Shown here: positions 12,633-23,491 of the stretch, piece after piece
How positions within the stretch are numbered: the first letter of the stretch is position 1
Layout: the number at the start of each line of letters is the position of its first letter
From: Riemerella columbina DSM 16469
GTDB taxonomy: Bacteria; Bacteroidota; Bacteroidia; Flavobacteriales; Weeksellaceae
Assembly: GCF_000374405.1 (NCBI RefSeq)
Contig: NZ_KB894217.1
Location: 86,619 to 150,618, forward strand
Length of the DNA: 64,000 nucleotides
Reading direction: 5' to 3'
The notes under the pieces: generated by a model
The model's database searches: none
Told to the model about the DNA's origin: nothing
Seen by the model: the letters and a program-made list of their open reading frames with translations, nothing else
Made by a program: the position numbers and the translations under genes

Positions 12633-13246
12633 AATTTGTAATTAACATATTGAAAACCATAATTATAACTGCTGAATTATTACTTTTAGTGATGCTTTCG
12701 GCAAATAGTTGGGTTTATGCACTAAATCATGGGCGAACTTATACCAAGGTAAGTAAAATTCCTTACAGAAATGCGGCTTTGGTATTGGGAACTTCGCCGA
12801 AAATGCGCTCTGGTATTGCCAATCCTTATTTCACGAAGCGTATGGAAGCGGTATCGGCATTATATCATTATGGTAAAATTGAAACAATAATTGTGAGTGG
12901 CGAAAAAAGTCCATACTACGACGAACCCAAAGCGATGAAAAATTATTTAGTGAATACTGAACATATTCCAGAAGATATAATTATAGAAGACCCCAAAGGT
13001 TATAGCACCAAAGAAAGTATTGAGCGTTGTAAGAATGTGTATCATCAAACAAATATCATCATTATTTCGCAAGGGTTTCATAATTTACGGGCTTTATTTT
13101 TTGCTCGAAATATGCATATGAATGCCTTAGCCTTTGAAGCCCAAGATGTCACGAAGCCAGAAAGTTATTATAGAAATCATACCCGAGAATTTTTAGCCAG
13201 AGTACAAGCAGTAGTATATTATGTATTGGGTATAGAAAAAAGATAA
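12629..13246 (+). CDS. SanA/YdcF-like (DUF218) membrane-anchored protein
   Basis: A 205-residue protein with an N-terminal membrane helix (residues ~5-27) followed by a DUF218 domain: AALVLGTSPKMRSGIANPYFTKRMEAVSALYHYGKIETIIVSGE, then STKESIERCKN and IIIISQGFHNLRALFFAR. The family includes SanA and ElyC, linked to envelope barrier function; no precise reaction is established. The frame opens with TTG at 12629, overlapping the TGA of the reductase gene by four bases; this start is needed to include the membrane helix. A later ATG (~12692) would remove most of it. The 20-bp left repeat of the integrated element begins 30 bases downstream. Confidence 0.82.
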   Translation: MKFVINILKTIIITAELLLLVMLSANSWVYALNHGRTYTKVSKIPYRNAALVLGTSPKMRSGIANPYFTKRMEAVSALYHYGKIETIIVSGEKSPYYDEPKAMKNYLVNTEHIPEDIIIEDPKGYSTKESIERCKNVYHQTNIIIISQGFHNLRALFFARNMHMNALAFEAQDVTKPESYYRNHTREFLARVQAVVYYVLGIEKR

Positions 13247-13276
13247 ACACATTTATGTAAATCATAATCAATTTAA

Positions 13277-13296
13277 CATAATATAAATTATAGGAT
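13277..13296 (+). repeat. Left attachment repeat (attL core)
   Basis: CATAATATAAATTATAGGAT, identical over 20 bases to 22820-22839; the match ends sharply at both sides. It contains ATAAT...ATTAT arms around a short AT spacer, the kind of symmetry tyrosine recombinases bind. It begins immediately after a TAA (13274-13276) in the frame of the following ORF. Confidence 0.8.
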
Positions 13297-13927
13297 AAAA
13301 AAATATACAAAATATTATAAATCAATATTTTATAAATTATTTGCGTGTTCATTTTTTATCATTTTTAGTATAAAATATTATCATTGTCAATCTTTAGAAA
13401 CTTTACAACAAGATTACAAACAATCTCGTATTGCTACCAATTCCCAGTTAATAAAACTCACATCCGAAAAAAAATCATGGAAATGGTTATCATTATTACC
13501 CACAGTATCAGTTTCTAGCACTTGGGATCCTTTCACACAGGTATATAGACCGACGGTCAATTTTGGAATATCCTTATCCAATTTATCCAATTATATACAA
13601 ACATCAAATCGCAATCGTATTGAGCGCGAAAAACTAGCTATTTCATTACAGGAGCAGCTATCATCACAATTAATCGCTATAGATGCAGAAATTTTAGACT
13701 TAAAAAGAGACTCTATTGCACTTACCTATGAACATAAAAACATCATGCTTTTAGAAGAACTATACACTATAAAATCAAAACAGTATGAGCAAAACCAAAT
13801 CAATTTAGAAGAAAAAATAAGACACCAGATGAATCTTAATAATAGTAAGCATTCATTTGAAATTCGAAAATTAAACTACGAAAACAAGCAGAAAAAATTA
13901 ATCAATAAACTAAAAAAACGCCTATGA
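13277..13927 (+). CDS. Secreted TolC-like coiled-coil protein whose start codon lies at the other end of the element
   Basis: The frame is open from 13277 to TGA 13925-13927 but holds no ATG, GTG or TTG until ATG 13745. The coding character starts far earlier: IKKYTKYYKSIFYKLFACSF is a signal-peptide-like N-terminus, then SLLPTVSVSSTW, RPTVNFGISLSNLSN, and two long coiled-coil helices rich in Lys/Glu/Asn, resembling one half of a TolC-type outer-membrane channel protein. In the circular form the ATG at 22811-22813 reads ATA CAT and through the repeat into this frame, giving MIHHNINYRIKKYTK... and 219 residues. An ATA at 13295 is the only alternative start-like codon. Its stop overlaps the next tiny ORF. 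TolC relation is a structural impression only. Confidence 0.6.
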   Translation, partial: HNINYRIKKYTKYYKSIFYKLFACSFFIIFSIKYYHCQSLETLQQDYKQSRIATNSQLIKLTSEKKSWKWLSLLPTVSVSSTWDPFTQVYRPTVNFGISLSNLSNYIQTSNRNRIEREKLAISLQEQLSSQLIAIDAEILDLKRDSIALTYEHKNIMLLEELYTIKSKQYEQNQINLEEKIRHQMNLNNSKHSFEIRKLNYENKQKKLINKLKKRL

Positions 13928-13995
13928 TGTGGTTAGGCATCGTAAGCGTTTTGAAAAAATTCTATTCTTTATTATGGACAAAAATACAATTTTAA
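13924..13995 (+). CDS. Possible 23-residue hydrophobic peptide
   Basis: ATG at 13924 overlaps the TGA of the preceding frame (ATGA) and reads MMWLGIVSVLKKFYSLLWTK plus three residues to TAA 13993-13995. It is hydrophobic with three Lys, and overlaps the primase start region in another frame. It could be a leader peptide that couples translation of the two large genes, or chance. Only the junction geometry supports it. Confidence 0.3.
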   Translation: MMWLGIVSVLKKFYSLLWTKIQF

Positions 13996-16067
13996 AGCAA
14001 ACAACACAAGTAGAAATTTACAATTATTACTACGGTCATGGCTTCATACCATATACCAAAATATCTTCACCATTTACAGAGGATAAGAACCCCAGTTTCA
14101 AAGTCTTTAAAAATGGTTCTTTCAAATGTTTTAGTACAGGGAAGCAAGGGGATGTTTGGCAATTTGTAGCAGACATTAAAGGCTTAGATTGTAAAACACA
14201 ATTTGCAGAAATATTAAATATAATCTCTAGTGATATGGGAGTTATCAAGGAACAGAAACAAAAAAATATAAATTTTCAGTCTATTAATAATAGTACTGAT
14301 AATAAACACTTTATATATTTTGAAAAACCCTATACTTCCCATAGTTTAGAATTTTGGACACAAGGAAATTGGAATGTTACAAAAGATATTCTAGAAAAAT
14401 ACAATGTCAAAAACCTTGATAAATACGAGTATTATAACTCTAAAAAAAATGCTATACAAAAAATAAAACTTTATTCTGGTATTGTGGGGTTTATTTATAA
14501 AGTCAATGACAATGCCGAAATTTATATCCCTGCACAAGGCAAAAACAAAAAATTCTTTTATAATAACCTTACATTTTCCGATATTTTTGGATACGAACAA
14601 TTAAAAAATAAAGAAGACTATATCATCATTACAGCAGGCAAAAAAGACTGTCTAATACTCAATGCCAATGGCTTTCCCGCCGTATCATTTAGGTCAGAAA
14701 GTGGCTTTATAAAAGAAGAAGAAATACTCAAGCTCAAGCAGAAAACAGACAATATTTACATTTGCTACGACAATGATAAAACAGGCATGGAAACCGCTTT
14801 AAAACTATGCCAGGCCTACTCTATCAAACAAATTATTTTACCCGAAAAATACAACGATATAGCCGACTATTTCCTAGTATACGATAAATCACACTATCAG
14901 AAATTAATACAAGAAATAAGAGAACTAGAAGAAGCCGAAACAAAAAAAGACACTCAAAACACTATATTTCATATCACAGAAGAATATTTATCTACTTACT
15001 ACAAATTCAGATACAATACCATTGCATTAGACATAGAATACTGCAAAAAAACAACCCATGATTGGAAATCACTCAATGAAAATTCCTTGTATTTAGAACT
15101 TCAGAAAAAAGGAATTAAAATCAGTATAAACAACCTCATTGCCATTCTAAAAAGTGAGTTTGTACCCCATTATAACCCTATACAGGAATACTTTGAGAAC
15201 TTACCAAAATGGGACGGTAGAACAGATTATATCAGTAACCTTGCCAATTATGTATACCCTTTGGATAGAGAAAAATTCAATCATCATTTCAAAAAATGGG
15301 CAGTTAGAACAGTTAAATGTGCGCTATTAGAAAGATACTTTAACAAACAAGCCTTCGTTTTAGTACACAAGGCTCAGAACTCAGGTAAAAGTTCTTTTTG
15401 CCGTTTCTTATGCCCACCAGAATTATCCCAATATCTAGCCGAAGATATTAGTAATGATAAAGATGCAAGGATACTATTATGCAAAAATTTCCTTATCAAT
15501 TTAGACGAACTTTCAAGCCTAGCCAAAAAAGAAATCAATACCCTAAAATCCTACTTCTCAAAAGACCAAATCAACGAACGCCTACCCTACGATAGAAAAA
15601 ATAGCATACTACCACGCATTTGCAGTTTTATAGGATCTACCAATAGAGATACATTTTTAGATGATGAAACAGGCTCCGTGCGTTGGTTATGCTTTCAAAT
15701 TACAGGCATCAATTGGAACTACCGTCAAGAGTGCAATATAGATTTATTTTGGTCTCAAGCCTATGCCCTTGCACTAGATGATAGTTTCAATAGCGAAATG
15801 ACATTTGATGAAATCCAAGACAACGAAGATAGAAACAAAAAATACCAAATCCTAAGCACTGAGCAAGAACTCATCGCCAGCAATTACAAACCAGCTCAGG
15901 AAAACGAAGGCGTATTTGTAACCAGTACAGATGTTTTGATAAGGCTATCAGAATTAGGCGTTAGGCTCTCTAGCGTACAGATTGGAAAAGCATTTAATGC
16001 CTTAGGCTTTGAAAGAAAAAAACATAAAACCAAACAAACCTACGGATACTGGGTAAAAGTATTATAA
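13974..16067 (+). CDS. Primase-helicase: CHC2-like, TOPRIM and VapE-type ATPase domains
   Basis: A 697-residue replication protein. Residues ~10-85 resemble the zinc-finger region of DnaG primases (PFTEDKNPSFKVF, FKCFSTGKQGDVWQFVADI), though only one Cys of the finger is evident. Residues ~215-300 form a TOPRIM fold (YIIITAGKKDCLILNANGFPAVSFRSES; DxD in ICYDNDKTG). Residues ~400-600 are a virulence-associated-E type helicase: YFENLPKWDGR, Walker A HKAQNSGKSSF, Walker B FLINLDEL, and FIGSTNRDTFLDDETGSVRWL. The chosen ATG 13974 starts just before the first domain; GTG 13929 would add 15 residues. Such proteins start replication of plasmids and phage satellites; iteron-like repeats follow within 250 bases. 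Probably co-transcribed with the preceding frame. Confidence 0.85.
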   Translation: MDKNTILKQTTQVEIYNYYYGHGFIPYTKISSPFTEDKNPSFKVFKNGSFKCFSTGKQGDVWQFVADIKGLDCKTQFAEILNIISSDMGVIKEQKQKNINFQSINNSTDNKHFIYFEKPYTSHSLEFWTQGNWNVTKDILEKYNVKNLDKYEYYNSKKNAIQKIKLYSGIVGFIYKVNDNAEIYIPAQGKNKKFFYNNLTFSDIFGYEQLKNKEDYIIITAGKKDCLILNANGFPAVSFRSESGFIKEEEILKLKQKTDNIYICYDNDKTGMETALKLCQAYSIKQIILPEKYNDIADYFLVYDKSHYQKLIQEIRELEEAETKKDTQNTIFHITEEYLSTYYKFRYNTIALDIEYCKKTTHDWKSLNENSLYLELQKKGIKISINNLIAILKSEFVPHYNPIQEYFENLPKWDGRTDYISNLANYVYPLDREKFNHHFKKWAVRTVKCALLERYFNKQAFVLVHKAQNSGKSSFCRFLCPPELSQYLAEDISNDKDARILLCKNFLINLDELSSLAKKEINTLKSYFSKDQINERLPYDRKNSILPRICSFIGSTNRDTFLDDETGSVRWLCFQITGINWNYRQECNIDLFWSQAYALALDDSFNSEMTFDEIQDNEDRNKKYQILSTEQELIASNYKPAQENEGVFVTSTDVLIRLSELGVRLSSVQIGKAFNALGFERKKHKTKQTYGYWVKVL

Positions 16068-16085
16068 TATGAAAATATTTCAAAT

Positions 16086-16301
16086 ATGAAACAAGTAGAA
16101 ATTAAAAACGAACTAGAATATATAGATGGTGTCAGAGAAGCACTAGGCTATATATTAGAAGTCATAGATAAGGATACAGATTATCTCTATCACGAAAAAG
16201 AAATCATTAAAAAATTCATACGCTCCGAAATTTGGAAAAACATTTCAGAAAAAGATTTTGATAATTTTTTAAATCAATTACAGCAACAAAAAAATAAATA
16301 A
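16086..16301 (+). CDS. Small acidic helical protein of unknown function
   Basis: 71 residues, strongly charged and helical (MKQVEIKNELEYIDGVREAL ... QQQKNK). It lies 18 bases after the primase-helicase gene and directly before the iteron-like repeats, so it may be a replication accessory or copy-control protein. No family is recognised. Confidence 0.55.
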   Translation: MKQVEIKNELEYIDGVREALGYILEVIDKDTDYLYHEKEIIKKFIRSEIWKNISEKDFDNFLNQLQQQKNK

Positions 16302-16303
16302 CC

Positions 16304-16492
16304 TTACCTAAGTTACCTAATCAGTATAATAAAATGATAATCAGGACAATAATTTTAGGTAAGATAATAAAATAAAGTTACCTAGAAGTTACCTAAGTTA
16401 CCTAATACATGTAGGTAGGTTGGGTAAGTTCAGGTAAGTATAGGTAAGTAGTCTTAGCCCCTATAAATAAAGGCTTTGGTAAGATAGGTAAG
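16304..16492. repeat. Iteron-like array of TTACCTAA / AGGTAAG motifs; candidate origin
   Basis: TTACCT(A)(A) occurs at 16304, 16313, 16378, 16389 and 16398; the complementary AGGTAA at about 16357, 16432, 16442 and 16486, with related GGGTAAG and TGGTAAG at 16422 and 16478. Forward copies dominate the left half and reverse copies the right half. The array fills the gap between the replication genes and the next lipoprotein gene. Iterons next to a primase gene are typical of replication origins; operator function for the genes on either side is the alternative. Confidence 0.6.
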
Positions 16493-16525
16493 ATTTTTTA
16501 GCAAAAACAGTTTAAAAAAAATAAT

Positions 16526-16783
16526 ATGAAAACCAACATCACACTCTTAGCATTAGCAGTATCAGCACTCACTGCCTGTAGTTACAAAAACTATCAACTT
16601 ACCCAAGACGATAGAAAACTACTAAAAAAATACCCCGAAATTATCCTTTTACACTCGGGTAAACAACATATTCTACTAGCCCGTAGATTAGAAATTATAG
16701 ACAGTATCCAGAACGCACATCAGCAGGACTTAGCACAAGAATTTAAAGAAGAGCAATACCATAACAATAGCGAAGACTTTTAA
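16526..16783 (+). CDS. Small putative lipoprotein
   Basis: 85 residues beginning MKTNITLLALAVSALTACSY, a lipoprotein signal with lipobox LTAC at residues 15-18. The mature part is short and charged (LTQDDRKLLKKYPEIILLHSGKQH, then an acidic tail). Its stop TAA shares one base with the ATG of the recombinase-ATPase gene (TAATG), so the two are probably translated together. Function unknown; pairing with a membrane-anchored recombinase is notable. Confidence 0.65.
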   Translation: MKTNITLLALAVSALTACSYKNYQLTQDDRKLLKKYPEIILLHSGKQHILLARRLEIIDSIQNAHQQDLAQEFKEEQYHNNSEDF

Positions 16784-18297
16784 TGCTTATGATTACCATA
16801 GACTACATATCAAAAGAAGAAAGCCTATTACTCATTGAAAAATGCAAAAATCCAAAGTACAAATGCATCATTCTTTTAATGTTAGATTGTGGCTTTAGAG
16901 TATCAGAAACCGTTACACTTAGGCTTAGAAACTTCGATTTTCAAAAAAGAACCATTACAATAAAATCACTCAAAAAGAAAAACGAAGACTATCGTACCAT
17001 ACCCATATCAGACCGTTTATACAGAGCCTTAGCCAACTATTTAGAACAATCCAAAATCCCCATTACACAGCCCGAAAACTACCTATTCCCAAGCTATACC
17101 CACAAAGGGCATCTATGCCGTAAGACTGTTTGGAAAGTCCTTAAGGCCTATGGAAAAAAATTAGGCATACAAAACCTACACCCGCACACGCTTAGGCATA
17201 CCTTTGCCACACATCATCTCAATAACGGGACTAAGTTAGAAGAAATAAAAACCATGCTAGGACATAGTTCATACGATACCACACTTATATATGCTCAGAT
17301 CCCTACCGAACAACTAAGCAAAAAAATAGAAGCCGTTACCACACAAAAAAGAAATTTTTGGGTTAGAGTTAAACATAAATTCTTCCCACCTAAAAAAACA
17401 AAACTTATCAATCTATCGTTCAACAAAAATTATTTTACCATTGGGCGAAATGAAGAATTATCAAAACTCAATGTCAATGCAGAATTAGGAATCAATACCG
17501 TTATCATTGGCGATATAGGCACAGGTAAAACCCACCTTCTAGACAATCTAAAAACAAACAAAAAAATACTAAAATTTGAAGACGATAGAATGGCAAAAAA
17601 ATCCCTTATGTATATGATGTTATACCTATTAAAAGGCGATAAAGAAAATATGTTATCTATGCTCTATGGCGATATTGGTATAGAAGCCGTAGAAAAAAAA
17701 ATACAAAGAGAATCAGCCCTATTCATTTGTGATAAAATTATGACCATCGTAGAACCAAAAGAATACATATTGCTAATAGATAATATTACAGACATTACAG
17801 CCGCTAGTAAAAGAATTATAGAACGCCTTAAAGACACCTTTGTTATCATTTGTGCAGCGCGGTATATCAAAAATAAAAACACCTCATTCCTTTGGAATTT
17901 CGAAAAAATAGAAATCAAAAATCTATCTCGAGAGAACGCCATAAAATTCATTCAGCAAAACTCATTTGGATTAGAAGTAGAATCTTGGGAAGACTTTAGA
18001 AACCACATCTACGAACAAACCAATGGCAACCCTCGTGCAATGGCAGAAATGATAGACCGTTATAGAAAAGAACCATTTTTAACCCTAGATATAGTAAAAA
18101 ACATTAAGCACTCTGGAGCATTACCCGAAATAGATTTTACCTTTATCATTGTTGTATTCTTAGGCATCATCACAGCACTACGCTATGCCAGCAGAGAGCT
18201 AGACGAGCCCGCACTCCGTATGATAGGCTCCGTAGGCCTAATACTACTCATCATCTCACGCCCATTATTCAAAGAACTCAAAAGAAAATTTATTTAA
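16783..18297 (+). CDS. Tyrosine recombinase catalytic domain fused to P-loop ATPase and two C-terminal membrane helices
   Basis: 504 residues in three parts. Residues ~1-180 are a tyrosine recombinase catalytic domain with the full set: Arg39 in CGFRVSE, a Lys-rich beta-hairpin (KSLKKKNEDYR), His135 and Arg138 in HPHTLRHTFA, His161 in LGHSSYDTT and Tyr170 in LIYAQI. The usual N-terminal core-binding domain is absent. Residues ~215-440 are a STAND/AAA-like ATPase: Walker A GDIGTGKT (243-250), Walker B YILLIDN (328-334), and TNGNPRAMAEM. Two hydrophobic helices (~451-468 and ~479-494) follow, with a positive tail. It presumably catalyses integration/excision at the 20-bp repeats. The membrane anchor and ATPase on a recombinase are unusual; no frameshift or join is visible. 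Confidence 0.85.
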   Translation: MLMITIDYISKEESLLLIEKCKNPKYKCIILLMLDCGFRVSETVTLRLRNFDFQKRTITIKSLKKKNEDYRTIPISDRLYRALANYLEQSKIPITQPENYLFPSYTHKGHLCRKTVWKVLKAYGKKLGIQNLHPHTLRHTFATHHLNNGTKLEEIKTMLGHSSYDTTLIYAQIPTEQLSKKIEAVTTQKRNFWVRVKHKFFPPKKTKLINLSFNKNYFTIGRNEELSKLNVNAELGINTVIIGDIGTGKTHLLDNLKTNKKILKFEDDRMAKKSLMYMMLYLLKGDKENMLSMLYGDIGIEAVEKKIQRESALFICDKIMTIVEPKEYILLIDNITDITAASKRIIERLKDTFVIICAARYIKNKNTSFLWNFEKIEIKNLSRENAIKFIQQNSFGLEVESWEDFRNHIYEQTNGNPRAMAEMIDRYRKEPFLTLDIVKNIKHSGALPEIDFTFIIVVFLGIITALRYASRELDEPALRMIGSVGLILLIISRPLFKELKRKFI

Positions 18298-18336
18298 TAT
18301 TTTTTTGTTTCTGTTAATCTTTTAATAATTAATATC

Positions 18337-19737
18337 ATGACAGCACCCAACCACATAGCAGGTGGCATACTATTCACAGGCATATTTACCAGCCTTTGGA
18401 ATGTCAATATATTCTCAAACCCCTACTACCTTGCAGCCACAATATTTGTATCTCTATTGCCCGATATAGACACACCAAAATCCATAATCGGAAAACCCTT
18501 TTACCCCATATCCAAATGGCTCTATCGTCGCTATGGTCATAGGACTATCACACACTCGCTACTCGCAACCGTCATCATCACACTATTAGTCCTTATCTTA
18601 CAAAAATTACAAATCATTCCAGAACACTACGCTTTAATCACATTCTTCGCTTACTTTGGGCATCTATTATTAGATATGCTCACAATCTCTGGTGTTCCCC
18701 TACTCTACCCGTTTTGGCGAAATCCTTGCGTTATCCCTGGTAACCCCACTTACAGATTCAGCACTGGCAACCTAAAGCAAGAAGGTATTTTATTTGTTGT
18801 ATTCCTATGCAGTTCCGCACTTATGAATAACCTATTTACACAAGGCTTTTGGCTTACCTATAACCAACAATTTAACGATATAACCCATGTTTATAGAGAA
18901 TTTACAAAATCAAACAAACTCTACAAAATAGACTACGATTTATACAACTTTCAAAAACCAGTCAAAGGAACAGGCTATTTAGTCTATGCAGATTTCCAGC
19001 AATTATACATCGTATCAAATGATACCATTATAAGATTAAGAGAAGGTCAGCAAGGGCTAAAAATCAATACTCTAAAACCATACAATACCAAACATACACT
19101 CACAACCAAAAGAGTAGAATTTAACCATATTACAGCCGATAGTTTAAATATATTGGTAGATGATAAATTCATATCCTACACCAAAATTACAGCTACAGAA
19201 AAAGCCGATGTTATCACATTAGAAAGAAAACTACACGATTACTATTTTGAACTAAAAAACGAACATAACTTATACTTTTCAAAATCCTTAAAAGACACCC
19301 TAAAAATAGAAACCATAGACCACTCAGAAGCCAATCAGCGTTTGAAATACGAAGAAAATCGCCTAAAAATACAACAGCAAATCCTAGAAAAACAAACCCA
19401 AATCGCTCAAGAAGAAGCCAATATCAAAGCCACAAACGAACCCTATTATAGAGCCTTAGAAGAAATCAAAATAGCCAAACAAAACCTATCCAACGAAACC
19501 GATAGTTACCAAATCAATGAACTAAAAAACCAAATCATAGCACTTCAAAAATACATAGACCATCATACCCCAAAAGACAGCCGTAATCTTGCATTACTCA
19601 AAGTACAACTATCAGGGCTTAATGCCCAACTAAACAAACCATTCAAATACATCAGCAACAAAAAAAATACCCCTAAAAATCCTTTGCTTTTCTCTGGATA
19701 TTTTGATTATTTTGTACTCCCAAATAAAAAACAATGA
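18337..19737 (+). CDS. DUF457/YdjM-like membrane metal-dependent hydrolase with coiled-coil C-terminus
   Basis: 466 residues. The N-terminal ~170 form a membrane domain with the family's histidine/aspartate motifs: MTAPNHIAGG, SLLPDIDTPKS, GHRTITHSLLA and GHLLLDML, expected to bind metal near the membrane. The family includes LexA-regulated YdjM; activity is poorly known. Residues ~335-440 are a long coiled coil (repeated Gln/Glu/Lys heptads), not typical of the short family members, after a beta-rich middle. It follows the recombinase gene by 39 bases and overlaps the nuclease gene by four bases, so the three probably form one operon. Confidence 0.8.
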   Translation: MTAPNHIAGGILFTGIFTSLWNVNIFSNPYYLAATIFVSLLPDIDTPKSIIGKPFYPISKWLYRRYGHRTITHSLLATVIITLLVLILQKLQIIPEHYALITFFAYFGHLLLDMLTISGVPLLYPFWRNPCVIPGNPTYRFSTGNLKQEGILFVVFLCSSALMNNLFTQGFWLTYNQQFNDITHVYREFTKSNKLYKIDYDLYNFQKPVKGTGYLVYADFQQLYIVSNDTIIRLREGQQGLKINTLKPYNTKHTLTTKRVEFNHITADSLNILVDDKFISYTKITATEKADVITLERKLHDYYFELKNEHNLYFSKSLKDTLKIETIDHSEANQRLKYEENRLKIQQQILEKQTQIAQEEANIKATNEPYYRALEEIKIAKQNLSNETDSYQINELKNQIIALQKYIDHHTPKDSRNLALLKVQLSGLNAQLNKPFKYISNKKNTPKNPLLFSGYFDYFVLPNKKQ

Positions 19738-20201
19738 GAGCATTTCTAATTATCTTTTTATTTTATTACGCTATCTTTTTTCCCCAACAAAAAGCCTTCG
19801 TTATAGGCATAAAAGATGGTGATACCATAGTCGTATTAGATAGTTTAAAAAATCAACATACCCTAAGACTTGCCGAAGTAGATTGCCCCGAAAATGGTCA
19901 AGCCTTCGGCAAAAACGCAAAGCAATTTGTATCATTACAAGTATTCAAAAAAAATATAACCTATTACCCTATTAATACAGATAGATACAGGAGAACCATT
20001 GCAAAAGTATATTATGACAATGGTAAATACTTATCCAAAGAAATCATAAAAAACGGCTTCGGTTGGTGGTATTATAAATATTCAGATGATAAGAGTTTAG
20101 GAGAATTACAACAAAAAGCACAACAACAAAAAATAGGTTTATTTTCCGATAAAAATGCTGTGGCTCCTTGGGTATATCGTCAGTATCATCAGCGATTCTA
20201 A
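19734..20201 (+). CDS. Thermonuclease (SNase-fold), probably exported
   Basis: 155 residues: a hydrophobic N-terminal segment (MRAFLIIFLFYYAIFFPQQ) consistent with export, then a staphylococcal-nuclease domain. Catalytic-type residues are Asp30 in KDGDTIV, Arg45 and Glu53 in LRLAEVDCPE, and Arg87 in DRYRRTIAKV, followed by WWYYKYSDD and GLFSDKNAVAPWVYR. The family cuts DNA and RNA with calcium. ATG overlaps the previous stop (ATGA). Export by an element that also encodes a recombinase recalls nucleases carried by conjugative plasmids; role here is unknown. Confidence 0.88.
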   Translation: MRAFLIIFLFYYAIFFPQQKAFVIGIKDGDTIVVLDSLKNQHTLRLAEVDCPENGQAFGKNAKQFVSLQVFKKNITYYPINTDRYRRTIAKVYYDNGKYLSKEIIKNGFGWWYYKYSDDKSLGELQQKAQQQKIGLFSDKNAVAPWVYRQYHQRF

Positions 20202-20492
20202 TTTTTTTTGTTTCTGTATTGCCACGCAGTGCCATATCCCCAGCCATATCCATCCACATATATCGCACTTGCTTCCTATGCAATCATGTATTATATTTTT
20301 TTCTCAAAAAATATAATACACATAGCTTTTTCCAACGCTTACTACTATTCGTCTTCTTATCTTTTTTTCCAAATAAAAATTTATAGTGGGGGTGGGTGGT
20401 AGACGCTTATTTTTTATCTTGTTTTCCCAACCCCCGCCCTGCGGGACGGGGCTTAGGAAACCGCTTCAATAATTTTTTTTATTTTTTTTGAC

Positions 20493-20536
20493 GGCTATAC
20501 CGTCAAAACCATTTATTCCAGTTTCACGGTATAGCC
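20493..20536. repeat. 11-bp inverted repeat GGCTATACCGT with 22-bp spacer
   Basis: GGCTATACCGT at 20493-20503 and ACGGTATAGCC at 20526-20536. It follows a T-tract after the nuclease gene region, so it could be a protein-binding site or an RNA hairpin. Confidence 0.55.
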
Positions 20537-21223
20537 TATTACGGGCGGTTATATGGTGTTCGGTTGTTCGGCGTACCCTGCGGGGTCTACGGCATCTGCA
20601 AGGGTAATAATAAACTCCGCTTTGCTCCGCCCTTGCATATGCCTCCGCCCCTTGTGCACCTCACTGCCCTCATCGCTCCACGTGTCACCGCTTCGCTATT
20701 TTTTTAGAAAAAAAATTGCCACACTCCGCCTATTGGGGCGTGCCGCTTAGTCGGCGCTGATTCCACGACTTTATTTAGTTCGCTTACGCTCCGCTCCAGC
20801 TGGCATCTAAGGTGTTCCCTTCCACTTCCGGTGCTACATCAGCTCCGCTTTGCTCCACCATTCCGCACCTTCAGGCATCGCCTCCACACGCCACTCCGCT
20901 CCCCCGCCCTACTTCCCCACACCATACCCATTCCCTTTCCCTCATCTGGTCGCTCCGCAGTACGCACGCCGGTTATCGCACCGCTTATATATAGGTGTCA
21001 GTGTGCGTGGCTCGACTACGCTCGCTATTTTTATACAGTCTTAGACTTTACGCTAATACATACACTACGCTGATTATCTTTTCCCACCCACCACCCTTTT
21101 GGGTGGTTACTTTCTATTTTGATTTGCTTAAAAAAACTGACACTTATAGGTAACTTAGCGGTATTGACTACCTGAAAAAGCATTTTTCATCCTTTTTGAT
21201 TCGATTGTTTTGTCTACTTTTTT

Positions 21224-21274
21224 GAGGATTGAAAGGGCGACAAAATCGCAATTTCGTCGCTCCTTTCAATCCTC
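21224..21274. repeat. Long near-perfect hairpin
   Basis: GAGGATTGAAAGG(A)GCGAC(A/G)AAAT pairs with its complement over about 24 base pairs, with one bulge, one mismatch and a 3-base loop. It is followed by GTAATTTTAAAAAAAA and lies 80 bases before the lipoprotein gene at 21354. It could be a terminator for a transcript from the GC-rich region, or a single-strand origin-like structure. Confidence 0.65.
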
Positions 21275-21353
21275 GTAATTTTAAAAAAAAACATTTGTTT
21301 TAATTCATTTTAGTATCTATATTACAGGCTCTTAACCATTAATTCTTTTTATT

Positions 21354-22100
21354 ATGAAAAAGCTAATTTTACTTACAGGAATTACACTTACAACTCTAGT
21401 TGCATGTAAAAGAGAAATCCATAATGAAGATAGCGAACTAAAAGAAATTACACCAATCGCTATGTGTGAGAAGACTTACAACACACCTTCTGTCCTTAAT
21501 AAATTCGGTACCCTTATTCGTACCACTTGTAAACCAGGTCCCGGGACTGAAGTTGTTTCACTATCAGCTAATGGTAATAATAGTAAATCTGATTTGATTA
21601 CATTTTCACAACCTTTAAAAACATTAGACAAGGTAAAAACTAAAGCCACCCACTTTTGGTTTTATGGCACAGATTCACAGCAATTATTTAAACCTATTAC
21701 TTACGCTCGTGTATTTGTTTTTGATGAAAACGATCCAAAGGTCAATCTAGCCAAACAACAGATACAAAGCGGAAATCATTATTTAGGATTTGACAGAGGA
21801 ATATTTGAAGGCATATATCCATATGTTGTGCTCAATATTAATCATAGAGAGGTCAATGGTAAAATATACAGTTCTTTTAATCTAGAGAATGAAGTAAAAA
21901 GAAGTTTACCTGTAGGCAAGCGAATTTTTATACAATTCATAGTACAAAAAACGCCAAATGAAGTACCTACATTTGAAAATGCTAAATTCACCTATTGTGA
22001 TTTTGTTAATGAAGATAATAAAGCCTATCCGCATTATAAAATAGACTTATCAGATGCTAATTTAGGTTATCAGGGTTCTTCATTTTACTATGTACAGTAA
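21354..22100 (+). CDS. Putative lipoprotein of unknown function
   Basis: 248 residues starting MKKLILLTGITLTTLVACKR, a lipoprotein signal with lipobox LVAC. The mature part has several Cys (PIAMCEKTYNTP, RTTCKPGPGTE, FTYCDFVNEDN) and looks beta-rich. No family recognised. It is monocistronic: the GC-rich region lies before it and a strong terminator after it. As element cargo it could be a surface protein acting on the host envelope, but nothing in the sequence shows a role. Confidence 0.65.
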   Translation: MKKLILLTGITLTTLVACKREIHNEDSELKEITPIAMCEKTYNTPSVLNKFGTLIRTTCKPGPGTEVVSLSANGNNSKSDLITFSQPLKTLDKVKTKATHFWFYGTDSQQLFKPITYARVFVFDENDPKVNLAKQQIQSGNHYLGFDRGIFEGIYPYVVLNINHREVNGKIYSSFNLENEVKRSLPVGKRIFIQFIVQKTPNEVPTFENAKFTYCDFVNEDNKAYPHYKIDLSDANLGYQGSSFYYVQ

Positions 22101-22117
22101 TGGATTTTTTAGAAATC

Positions 22118-22149
22118 AAAAAAAGACTATCTATTAGATGGTCTTTTTT
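22118..22149 (+). terminator. Terminator after the lipoprotein gene
   Basis: An A-tract, then GACTATCT / AGATGGTC pairing around loop ATT, and T6. It separates the lipoprotein gene from the toxin promoter, which starts three bases later. Confidence 0.75.
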
Positions 22150-22151
22150 AT

Positions 22152-22159
22152 TATATTTG
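22152..22159 (+). promoter_or_regulatory. -7 box of the toxin-like gene
   Basis: TATATTTG, 20 bases before the ATG at 22180. It shows that the toxin-like gene has its own promoter, separate from the antitoxin-like gene on the other strand. Confidence 0.6.
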
Positions 22160-22179
22160 TATCAAAATTGATATAAAAA

Positions 22180-22488
22180 ATGGAACGGGTTATTTTATGG
22201 ACAGATACAGCAAAAAATTCTTTTAATGATAATATAGCATATCTTTTAGAAGATTGGACACAAAAGGAAATAGAGAATTTTATAGACAAAACCGACTCAG
22301 CAATAGAAAATTTGCGTTATCATCCTTATATAGGCAAACCTGTTAGTGGCTATTCAGACTATAGAAACATACTCATTGTACCACAAATTAGTTTAATTTA
22401 TCGTGTAGTAAACACCTATGAAATTCTTTTAATTACTTTTTTCAATAACTATCAAAATCCTTACAAACTAGAGATACTTCTCTCTTAA
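22180..22488 (+). CDS. RelE/ParE-family toxin-like protein
   Basis: 102 residues with the RelE/ParE pattern: WTDTAKNSFNDNIAYLLEDWTQKEIENFIDKTDSAIENLRYHPYIGKPVSGYSDYRNILI, then ISLIYRVVNTYEILLITFFNNYQNP. Members poison ribosomes (RelE) or gyrase (ParE); which applies here cannot be read. Start ATG lies 20 bases after a TATATTTG box. The gene ends overlapping, by 21 bases and tail to tail, the antitoxin-like gene on the minus strand. Most such pairs are co-directional operons, so the convergent layout is odd. It may serve to keep the element in the cell line. Confidence 0.83.
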   Translation: MERVILWTDTAKNSFNDNIAYLLEDWTQKEIENFIDKTDSAIENLRYHPYIGKPVSGYSDYRNILIVPQISLIYRVVNTYEILLITFFNNYQNPYKLEILLS

Positions 22489-22764
22489 GTCTTTCATGTA
22501 CTCTCTATGTTCTTGTACTCTTCCATTTTTGTAATCAGCTTCCGCTTTTTCTATTTCATATAGAAGAGCTTCCTGTGGTTTGAGCAATGTAAGTATTTTT
22601 AATACTTCATCAGGTGTAAAAGTTAGAGACTTTAACTTTCTATAAAAAGTTGGTGCTGGTATCCCTACTTGCTCAATAATATATGTTTTTTTAAATGGGC
22701 TTTTATCCAATAGTCCTTCAATACCATCAAGCACATTTTTATATGCAATAACTTCTTGTATCAT
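22468..22764 (-). CDS. Antitoxin-like HTH protein, convergent with toxin
   Basis: 98 residues. The middle, TYIIEQVGIPAPTFYRKLKSLTFTPDEVLKIL, looks like a Cro/XRE helix-turn-helix. The C-terminal tail ADYKNGRVQEHREYMKDLREKYL resembles toxin-binding ends of RelB/ParD-type antitoxins (GRV..H.E). Its promoter is the minus-strand TATATTTG at 22793-22800, half of a 19-bp palindrome that also carries the outward plus-strand promoter. It probably represses itself at that palindrome, and so could also control the outward promoter. Assignment as antitoxin rests on the motif and its toxin neighbour. Confidence 0.7.
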   Translation of the reverse strand: MIQEVIAYKNVLDGIEGLLDKSPFKKTYIIEQVGIPAPTFYRKLKSLTFTPDEVLKILTLLKPQEALLYEIEKAEADYKNGRVQEHREYMKDLREKYL

Positions 22765-22781
22765 ATTTGAAATATTTTTAT

Positions 22782-22800
22782 TATATTTGTTGCAAATATA
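22782..22800. promoter_or_regulatory. Palindrome holding two divergent -7 boxes: antitoxin and outward junction promoter
   Basis: TATATTTG TTG CAAATATA: an 8-base inverted repeat with 3-base centre. The plus-strand TATATTTG (22782-22789) has a TTG at 22756-22758 as possible -33, spacer 23, and points to ATG 22811 and out across the right repeat. The minus-strand TATATTTG (22793-22800) serves the antitoxin-like gene starting at 22764. One bound dimer would control both directions. Confidence 0.65.
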
Positions 22801-22810
22801 CGAATTAAAA

Positions 22811-22852
22811 ATGATACATCATAATATAAATTATAGGATTTTTATTAAATAA
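22811..22852 (+). other. Outward start codon crossing attR; first codons of the circular-form gene
   Basis: ATG at 22811 reads ATA CAT and enters the right repeat at 22820 in the same codon phase as the ORF after the left repeat. In the integrated state it gives only 13 residues (MIHHNINYRIFIK) to TAA 22850-22852. In the joined circle it would continue into the 13297-13927 frame and form a 219-residue protein. Leader from the -7 box is 21 bases. Confidence 0.65.
22820..22839 (+). repeat. Right attachment repeat (attR core)
   Basis: Exact copy of the 20-bp repeat at 13277-13296. To its right, host sequence leads at once into the pncA-side terminator; to its left is the element's outward promoter and ATG. 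Confidence 0.8.
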
Positions 22853-22882
22853 AAAAACATCACAGAATTTATGATGTTTTTT
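22852..22882 (-). terminator. Terminator downstream of pncA
   Basis: AAAAAACATCA (22852-22862) pairs with TGATGTTTTTT (22872-22882) around a 9-base loop. It lies directly after the pncA stop on the minus strand and could also stop the outward transcript from the integrated element. Confidence 0.75.
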
Positions 22883-22885
22883 GAT

Positions 22886-23491
22886 TTACCCCAAAATAGT
22901 AACCCCGTTTTGAAGCATCTCATAAATGGCATCTCTACCATTTTCTGGACGCACATTTACAGCCTTGGTTCCGTTGAAATGTACACATGTAATAAAGCCT
23001 TCTTTAGCAGCATCTATACAAGTATATTTTACGCAATAATCTAGTGCTAGCCCAACCACTTCAATCATTTGAATATCATTTGATTTTAGATAATCTGCTA
23101 AGCCTGTTTTCATAAACTGATTATTATCTTGGAAGGCACTATAACTATCAAATTCTGCATTTTGACCTTTCTTTATAATATGGTCAATTTTGCTTGTATT
23201 TAAATCTTTATGAAATTCTGCGCCATGCGAACCTTGTACACAATGGTCTGGCCACATAAACTGCGGAATTCCATTTAGAGTAATAGTCTTACCAACTTTT
23301 TTACCGTTGTTAGACGCAAAACTTTTATGGTTCTGAGGATGCCAATCTTGTGTAAAAACAATTTTATCGTATTGATTTTCTTCTATTAATAAGTTAATAT
23401 ACGGAATAATATCGCTTGCATTAGGAACGGCTAAAGCGCCGCCTTCACAAAAATCATTTTGTACATCAACTACAATCAGTGCTTTTTTCAT
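22886..23491 (-). CDS. pncA: Nicotinamidase / pyrazinamidase
   Basis: 201 residues of the isochorismatase-like hydrolase fold, converting nicotinamide to nicotinate for NAD salvage in the cytoplasm. Catalytic triad candidates are the Asp in VDVQNDFCEGGALAVP, a Lys in IIKKGQNAEFDSYSAF, and Cys in VVGLALDYCVKYTCIDA. Metal-binding Asp/His are in FTQDWHPQNHKSF. Starts MKKALIVVDVQ as expected. It reads toward the integrated element and is the nearest host gene on the right flank; integration does not interrupt it. Confidence 0.92.
   Translation of the reverse strand: MKKALIVVDVQNDFCEGGALAVPNASDIIPYINLLIEENQYDKIVFTQDWHPQNHKSFASNNGKKVGKTITLNGIPQFMWPDHCVQGSHGAEFHKDLNTSKIDHIIKKGQNAEFDSYSAFQDNNQFMKTGLADYLKSNDIQMIEVVGLALDYCVKYTCIDAAKEGFITCVHFNGTKAVNVRPENGRDAIYEMLQNGVTILG

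What the first reader, a model, noticed from the sequence alone, without database searches (positions are those of the whole stretch)
22782..22800. One palindrome, two promoters: antitoxin-like repressor may control the circular-form operon
TATATTTG TTG CAAATATA puts two -7 boxes head to head. The leftward one drives the HTH antitoxin-like gene, the rightward one the junction promoter. Autorepression by the antitoxin would also silence or tune the replication operon, linking stability and copy control.
Basis: inference. Interest (0 to 1): 0.62.

Follow-up and report, generated by a model that had tools for sequence, protein, structure and literature searches.

The report
Head-to-head promoters on a dif-integrated element
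A short DNA palindrome at the end of a mobile element looks like two bacterial promoters overlapping back to back, one for an antidote gene and one that can switch on the element's own genes only after it loops out of the chromosome.

Summary
The palindrome TATATTTG-TTG-CAAATATA is at 22782-22800. It is best read as two overlapping divergent promoters rather than a repressor-binding palindrome.

It lies 19 bp inside the right-end repeat of a 9.5-kb element integrated at the chromosomal dimer-resolution site dif. In the rejoined circle an OEP (TolC-like) gene reads in frame across the junction: its ATG (22811) is at the right end, its body at the left end. In this element and its relative in G003 no other canonical start precedes the body, and the nearest upstream -7 box is the palindrome's rightward box.

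The leftward box sits where 32 of 38 homologous antitoxin loci have theirs. The head-to-head partner occurs only in the two elements (2 of 38). G003 breaks the symmetry at a degenerate promoter position but keeps both boxes. The family's conserved, phased motif is TATCA, not this palindrome. One TATCA copy overlaps the junction gene's start codon, so antitoxin control of the junction operon remains possible through another site; polymerase competition could couple the promoters anyway.

No binding, transcript or excision was tested. A third element (L071) has its own start codon, so the junction-spanning start is not universal.

The parts
22782..22800 (.). 19-bp palindrome TATATTTG-TTG-CAAATATA: two -7 boxes head to head
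22793..22800 (-). leftward -7 box TATATTTG, 36 nt before the antitoxin ATG; predicted +1 near 22788
   Evidence: box at -36 to -40 in 32 of 38 family loci; +1 inferred from box position in PMC9723704
22782..22789 (+). rightward -7 box TATATTTG, 29 nt before the junction ATG 22811; predicted +1 near 22794
   Evidence: kept in G003, broken in G005 where the element is absent
22812..22816 (-). TATCA motif at -16 of the leftward box, overlapping the junction start codon; candidate antitoxin site
22160..22164 (+). TATCA at +8 of the toxin gene's -7 box (22152-22159); candidate antitoxin site
22468..22764 (-). 98-aa HTH-like antitoxin candidate, convergent with the toxin
22180..22488 (+). 102-aa ParE-like toxin
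   Evidence: PF05016, 29 bits against cut-off 23
22811..22839 (+). right-end part of the junction ORF: ATG and first codons, crossing the att repeat
13297..13927 (+). left-end part of the junction ORF: signal-peptide-like stretch and OEP (TolC-like) body, without a canonical start codon before it
13974..16067 (+). CHC2/Toprim/VapE-like primase-helicase, downstream of the junction ORF (start ATG chosen by comparison with G003)
16304..16491 (+). TTACCT/AGGTAA iteron-like cluster, candidate origin of the circle
   Evidence: 9 copies in 250 nt; 7 in G003, 6 in L071
16783..18297 (+). Xer-like tyrosine recombinase fused to an AAA-type ATPase and a C-terminal hydrophobic stretch
13271..13296 (+). attL: full dif-like site
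22820..22839 (+). attR: 20-bp repeat; the XerD-side half is degenerate
22846..22888 (+). host-side hairpin with a T run just outside attR, expected to stop rightward RNA while integrated
   Evidence: fold z-score -3.74

Best explanation
The palindrome is a pair of overlapping divergent promoters. The leftward -7 box (22793-22800) transcribes the antitoxin-like gene in both states of the element. The rightward -7 box (22782-22789) makes at most a short dead-end RNA while the element sits at dif, because a host hairpin follows. After excision and circularisation it transcribes the junction gene (promoter and ATG from the right end, signal peptide and OEP body from the left end) and, by read-through, the primase-helicase. 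Because the boxes are 3 bp apart, polymerase on one side should exclude polymerase on the other, so the promoters compete even without a repressor. If the antitoxin also represses, the likely site is the TATCA element over the junction start codon (22812-22816), not the palindrome. Shown by sequence: the boxes, dif integration, the split ORF, the phased TATCA motif. Inferred: promoter activity, circularisation, polymerase exclusion, repressor binding, operon read-through.
For: TAnnTTTG is enriched 20-60 nt before genus ORFs (64 of 251 against 123 of 3200 random positions), and both boxes lie at typical distances (36 and 29 nt). Antitoxin-family promoters carry the leftward box at -36 to -40 in 32 of 38. 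Exact dif once in 6 of 6 genus genomes, with extra copies only beside elements, and GC skew flips there. Junction ORF open in 2 of 2 rejoined circles without another canonical start before the body, and no other + box nearby. The 9 differences between the window and G003 in the 55-nt intergenic stretch avoid all 12 fixed box positions. The rightward box is broken in the TA-only copy of G005. Host hairpins follow attR in both.
Against: No transcript, excision or protein evidence. Only two complete elements were found, and they are close relatives; avoidance of 12 positions by 9 changes has P of about 0.1 by my hand estimate. In L071 the OEP homologue has its own ATG and the junction frame is closed. 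A box alone is common: 122 in the 64-kb window. The hydrophobic N-terminus was judged by eye.
Confidence: 0.55

Rival explanations
1. One reading: the palindrome itself is the antitoxin operator, so autorepression silences both promoters from one site.
For: It is a perfect dyad placed over the antitoxin promoter, where many type II antitoxins bind (established knowledge).
Against: Only 2 of 38 family promoters have the second arm; G003 breaks the dyad at an n position while keeping both boxes, and G005 breaks the second arm; a different motif, TATCA, is conserved and phased. The HTH assignment itself is weak.
Confidence: 0.1
2. The antitoxin represses both promoters through TATCA copies, mainly the one at 22812-22816 that overlaps the junction start codon, and represses the toxin through the copy at 22160-22164.
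For: TATCA sits at phased positions in 13 of 17 cluster representatives (0.79 expected, 0 of 500 shuffles as high), roughly 22 bp apart; the copy at 22812-22816 is also in G003 and G005, and toxin promoters of the window and G003 carry a copy at +8.
Against: Binding not shown; that the antitoxin reads TATCA is inferred; the copy near the ATG in relatives could be a translation signal; at the position just before the ATG the window and G003 have TTTCA instead.
Confidence: 0.4
3. Only the leftward promoter is real; the rightward box is a by-product of AT-rich sequence, and the junction ORF and primase are transcribed some other way (host read-through at attL, or an alternative sigma factor).
For: The box is frequent (122 in 64 kb); some 74% of genus ORFs of this size class lack one in the usual place (64 of 251 have it); L071 shows that the gene can have its own start; an upstream host gene points into the left end.
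Against: The box is at a preferred distance from the only canonical start of the junction ORF in both complete elements, and it is the arm that decays in the TA-only copy. Read-through at attL would not supply a start codon for the OEP gene.
Confidence: 0.3

Closest known systems
State-dependent promoter switching of ICEKp1, ICEclc and ICEEc1 (PMC13023037; abstract and one Results section read)
   Same: A promoter at one end of an integrative element serves a gene at the other end once the ends are joined.
   Different: There it drives the integrase gene, with a host tRNA promoter in the integrated state. Here it would drive an OEP-primase operon, the start codon also crosses the junction, and the promoter overlaps an antitoxin promoter.
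IMEX: integrative mobile elements exploiting Xer, such as LME-1 (PMC9765430, passages) and Bacteroidetes microvirus-like proviruses (PMC3091885, passages)
   Same: Integration at dif through a dif-like att site; one end keeps a full dif, the other a modified one.
   Different: This element also encodes its own Xer-like recombinase fused to an ATPase, whereas IMEX use the host enzymes; gene content is plasmid-like.
Type II ParE/RelE toxin-antitoxin pairs
   Same: ParE-family toxin next to a small HTH-like partner whose family accompanies ParE-like genes in many loci.
   Different: The two genes are convergent with separate promoters (5 of 18 loci read have this layout) instead of one operon.
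Plasmid pA5BP1, NZ_MN657160.1
   Same: Recombinase-ATPase (53% identity), YdjM-like hydrolase and an OEP relative (37%) close together on a circular replicon.
   Different: Different replication gene, no antitoxin relative found on plasmids, and no match within 3 mismatches to the dif core next to its OEP gene.

Membership tests
Bacteroidota sigma-A promoter (TAnnTTTG) | TAnnTTTG -7 box at a usual distance from the start codon | tested here: met
   36 nt leftward, 29 nt rightward; genus peak 21-40 nt
Bacteroidota sigma-A promoter (TAnnTTTG) | Transcript start just downstream of the box | not testable with these tools
   no RNA data
IMEX | Integrated at chromosomal dif with a dif-like att site | tested here: met
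   E. coli dif read in PMC3025954
IMEX | Uses host Xer recombinases instead of its own | tested here: inconclusive
   the element has its own Xer-like recombinase; which enzyme acts is unknown
Circle-activated promoter switch | Promoter at one end faces across the junction into a gene at the other end | tested here: met
   (sequence only)
Circle-activated promoter switch | Excised circle and state-dependent transcript exist | not testable with these tools
   no reads or RNA
Type II ParE toxin-antitoxin | ParE-family toxin | tested here: met
   PF05016, 29 bits against cut-off 23
Type II ParE toxin-antitoxin | Partner with a DNA-binding domain | tested here: inconclusive
   HTH_26 in 6 of 15 members at E up to 0.1, best 0.0037; the window protein has only weak TrmB and Xre-like hits below cut-off
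Type II ParE toxin-antitoxin | One operon, antitoxin and toxin co-transcribed | tested here: not met
   convergent genes
Type II ParE toxin-antitoxin | Toxicity neutralised by the partner | not testable with these tools
   needs expression
Palindromic antitoxin operator | The dyad is conserved in the family's promoters | tested here: not met
   second arm in 2 of 38; dyad imperfect in G003

The most novel reading that the evidence does not exclude
A toxin-antitoxin module serves as the on-switch of its own mobile element. Its promoter region supplies both a head-to-head promoter and, inside a putative antitoxin-binding motif, the start codon of a gene whose body lies at the other end of the element. 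Replication functions and addiction would then be read from one mutually exclusive switch that becomes productive only in the circle.
Probability: 0.25. Interest if true: 0.68.

Novelty: new variant of a known kind. Interest (0 to 1): 0.45.

Why it matters
It would be a compact way for a small dif-integrated element to sense that it has left the chromosome, since both the promoter and the start codon of its first gene come from the other end. It would also tie that switch to a toxin-antitoxin module by polymerase or repressor competition. The architecture is directly testable: single base changes in either box should separate the two promoters. It also argues for checking reading frames across att junctions, because gene callers cannot see a gene that exists only in the circle.

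Tried and rejected
Rejected: the 19-bp palindrome as the conserved antitoxin operator. Rejected as a test: a -33 TTG box; it shows no clear signal in 65 genus boxes, so its absence says nothing.

Led nowhere: relatives in viral contigs (none by tblastn); near-identical plasmids (none); the antitoxin on plasmids (none); the recombinase in phage records (only partial matches); Rfam matches in 13000-23200 (none); solved structures for the antitoxin profile (best E 0.28); PADLOC (weak partial matches only); a tRNA attachment site (no tRNA in the window); more elements in the order (one weak hit besides the window's own genome among 395 genomes). The sigma-70-type scan of 22100-23000 gave 5 sites against 5.6 expected. 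No structure prediction was run. The genome-contig scan gave one relative, L071, which partly contradicts the junction-start model and is reported as such.

Rows dropped: of 43 antitoxin loci, four with duplicate upstream regions (L016, L113, L122, L124) and one at a contig edge (L104). The truncated copy L002 was never included. The 43 loci are those laid out, not all places listed there.

Full report
Observation. The sequence TATATTTGTTGCAAATATA is at 22782-22800. It is the only TANNTTTGNNNCAAANNTA in the window (mean 0.04 in shuffles). The assembly holds 6 such sites against 2 for the reversed control. One of these (L005) lies between divergent ORFs with start codons 25 and 26 nt away; another (L004) has no ORF of at least 50 codons nearby. 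The arrangement is thus a plausible, recurrent way to build overlapping divergent promoters.

Are the boxes promoters? In the window and 15 stretches of 20 kb from the same-genus genome G004, a TAnnTTTG starts 20-60 nt before the ATG of 64 of 251 ORFs of at least 150 aa, against 123 of 3200 random positions, with a peak at 21-40 nt. No clear -33 signal was seen. In F. psychrophilum the sigma-A box TAnnTTTG lies at -12 to -5 and the median 5' leader is 24 nt (PMC9723704, passages). Applied here, this predicts +1 at 22788 (leftward, 24-nt leader) and 22794 (rightward, 17-nt leader). These positions are inferred.

Setting. A 20-bp exact repeat (13277-13296 and 22820-22839) bounds a 9,543-bp element. 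ATTTAACATAATATAAATTATAGGA occurs exactly once in each of 6 of 6 genomes of the genus. Extra degenerate copies occur only in G000 and G003 (this element) and in G002 (two tandem 5,224-bp units of another element). The GC skew of G004 flips there: +0.057 in the 4 kb to the left, -0.160 in the 4 kb to the right. The reverse complement of 13271-13296 shares TTATGTTAAAT with E. coli dif (sequence read in PMC3025954). The target is therefore dif. G003 carries the same element (8,772 bp; primase 93% identical). A Flavobacteriaceae MAG contig, L071 (G037:C71 in the genome search; that they are the same contig is inferred from matching gene positions), carries its left end at dif. No other clear element was found in 320 family genomes or 395 order genomes.

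The circle junction. When the ends are rejoined, a frame starts at ATG 22811, crosses the repeat and ends at 13927 in the window (219 aa); the G003 circle has the same layout. Between that ATG and the mature part there is no in-frame ATG, GTG or TTG in either, and in the integrated state a TAA stands directly left of the repeat in the window, G003 and L071. The protein has a signal-peptide-like N-terminus (by eye) and matches the outer-membrane efflux family PF02321 just above its cut-off (23.6 against 22 bits). In L071 the homologue has its own ATG 30 nt after the repeat and the junction frame is closed by a stop, so the junction-spanning start is a feature of two of three elements. L071 has no box between 2561 and its ATG at 2668, and its right end is not on the contig, so its promoter could not be read. 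In the window circle the rightward box is the only + strand box in the last 120 nt of the right end, the next one lying 1,285 nt into the left end; G003 shows none in 1,200 nt. Outside attR, host hairpins follow in both genomes (z -3.74; z -3.55), so rightward RNA would be short while integrated.

The antitoxin side. The 98-aa gene belongs to a family found in 82 of 320 genomes, next to ParE-like genes in many loci. In 5 of 18 loci read the pair is convergent, as here. Of 43 loci laid out, 38 distinct upstream regions remained after removing four duplicates and one contig edge. A box lies at -36 to -40 in 32 of 38. TATCA recurs at about -15, +8 and +30 from the box start (23, 8 and 15 of 38; the first class was counted between -25 and -10, the last within 15 nt of the ATG). 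Because many loci are close relatives, I clustered them: 20 clusters, 17 representatives with a box, 13 of which have TATCA at one of the phased positions, against 0.79 expected and 0 of 500 shuffles as high. The head-to-head partner box at +11 occurs only in the window and G003. The toxin promoters of both also carry TATCA at +8.

What changed between relatives. In the 55-nt intergenic stretch the window and G003 differ at 9 positions: three are the spacer (TTG to CAA, its reverse complement, as a micro-inversion would give) and one is at an n position of the leftward box. None falls in the 12 fixed box positions. This is suggestive only (P about 0.1, a hand estimate made over a 60-nt stretch). 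In G005, where the same TA pair exists without the element, the leftward box is intact and the rightward one reads TACATTTA.

Mechanism. The best-supported reading is a pair of mutually exclusive promoters, one of which becomes productive only in the circle. Antitoxin repression of the junction operon is possible through the TATCA element over the junction start codon. It is unlikely through the palindrome itself. Copy control by this route is a further inference with no test here. The primase and an iteron-like cluster (9, 7 and 6 repeats in the window, G003 and L071) make a replicating circle plausible, as does the presence of recombinase-ATPase, YdjM and OEP relatives on circular plasmid pA5BP1.

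Known relatives. The promoter principle has a direct precedent in ICEKp1, ICEclc and ICEEc1 (PMC13023037, abstract and one Results section). The dif target has precedents in IMEX (PMC9765430, passages) and in Bacteroidetes microvirus-like proviruses (PMC3091885, passages). I found no paper describing a TA promoter overlapping a circle-activated promoter, or an element gene whose start codon lies across dif. This rests on the listings only, in an open-access library.

Noticed in passing
13271-13296 and 22820-22839: The element's attachment site is the chromosomal dif site: one exact copy in each of 6 of 6 genus genomes, at a GC-skew flip in G004.
   Followed up: yes
L072 3300-13763 (G002): Two tandem 5,224-bp copies of a different element at dif, with a rolling-circle Rep-like protein, an endolysin-like protein and a 169-aa tyrosine recombinase.
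   Followed up: partly
16304-16491: Iteron-like cluster of TTACCT/AGGTAA repeats, kept in G003 and L071; a candidate origin.
   Followed up: partly
22790-22792: The spacer between the boxes is TTG here and CAA in G003, its exact reverse complement, as if the palindrome's loop had inverted once.
   Followed up: partly
G000:C18:17718-17912 (L002): A truncated relative of the antitoxin gene (72% identity over residues 32-96) elsewhere in the same genome.
   Followed up: no
16783-18297: Xer-like recombinase domain fused to an AAA-type ATPase with a C-terminal hydrophobic stretch; full-length relatives on Bacteroidota plasmids, often near a YdjM-like hydrolase.
   Followed up: partly
16064-16103 and 22747-22786: 40-nt inverted arms, 83% complementary: the leader and start of the small ORF at 16086 resemble those of the antitoxin gene.
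   Followed up: no
L071 9563-9742 and L072 5147-5329: Small membrane-type ORFs of about 60 aa that look alike by eye in two otherwise different dif-integrated elements.
   Followed up: no
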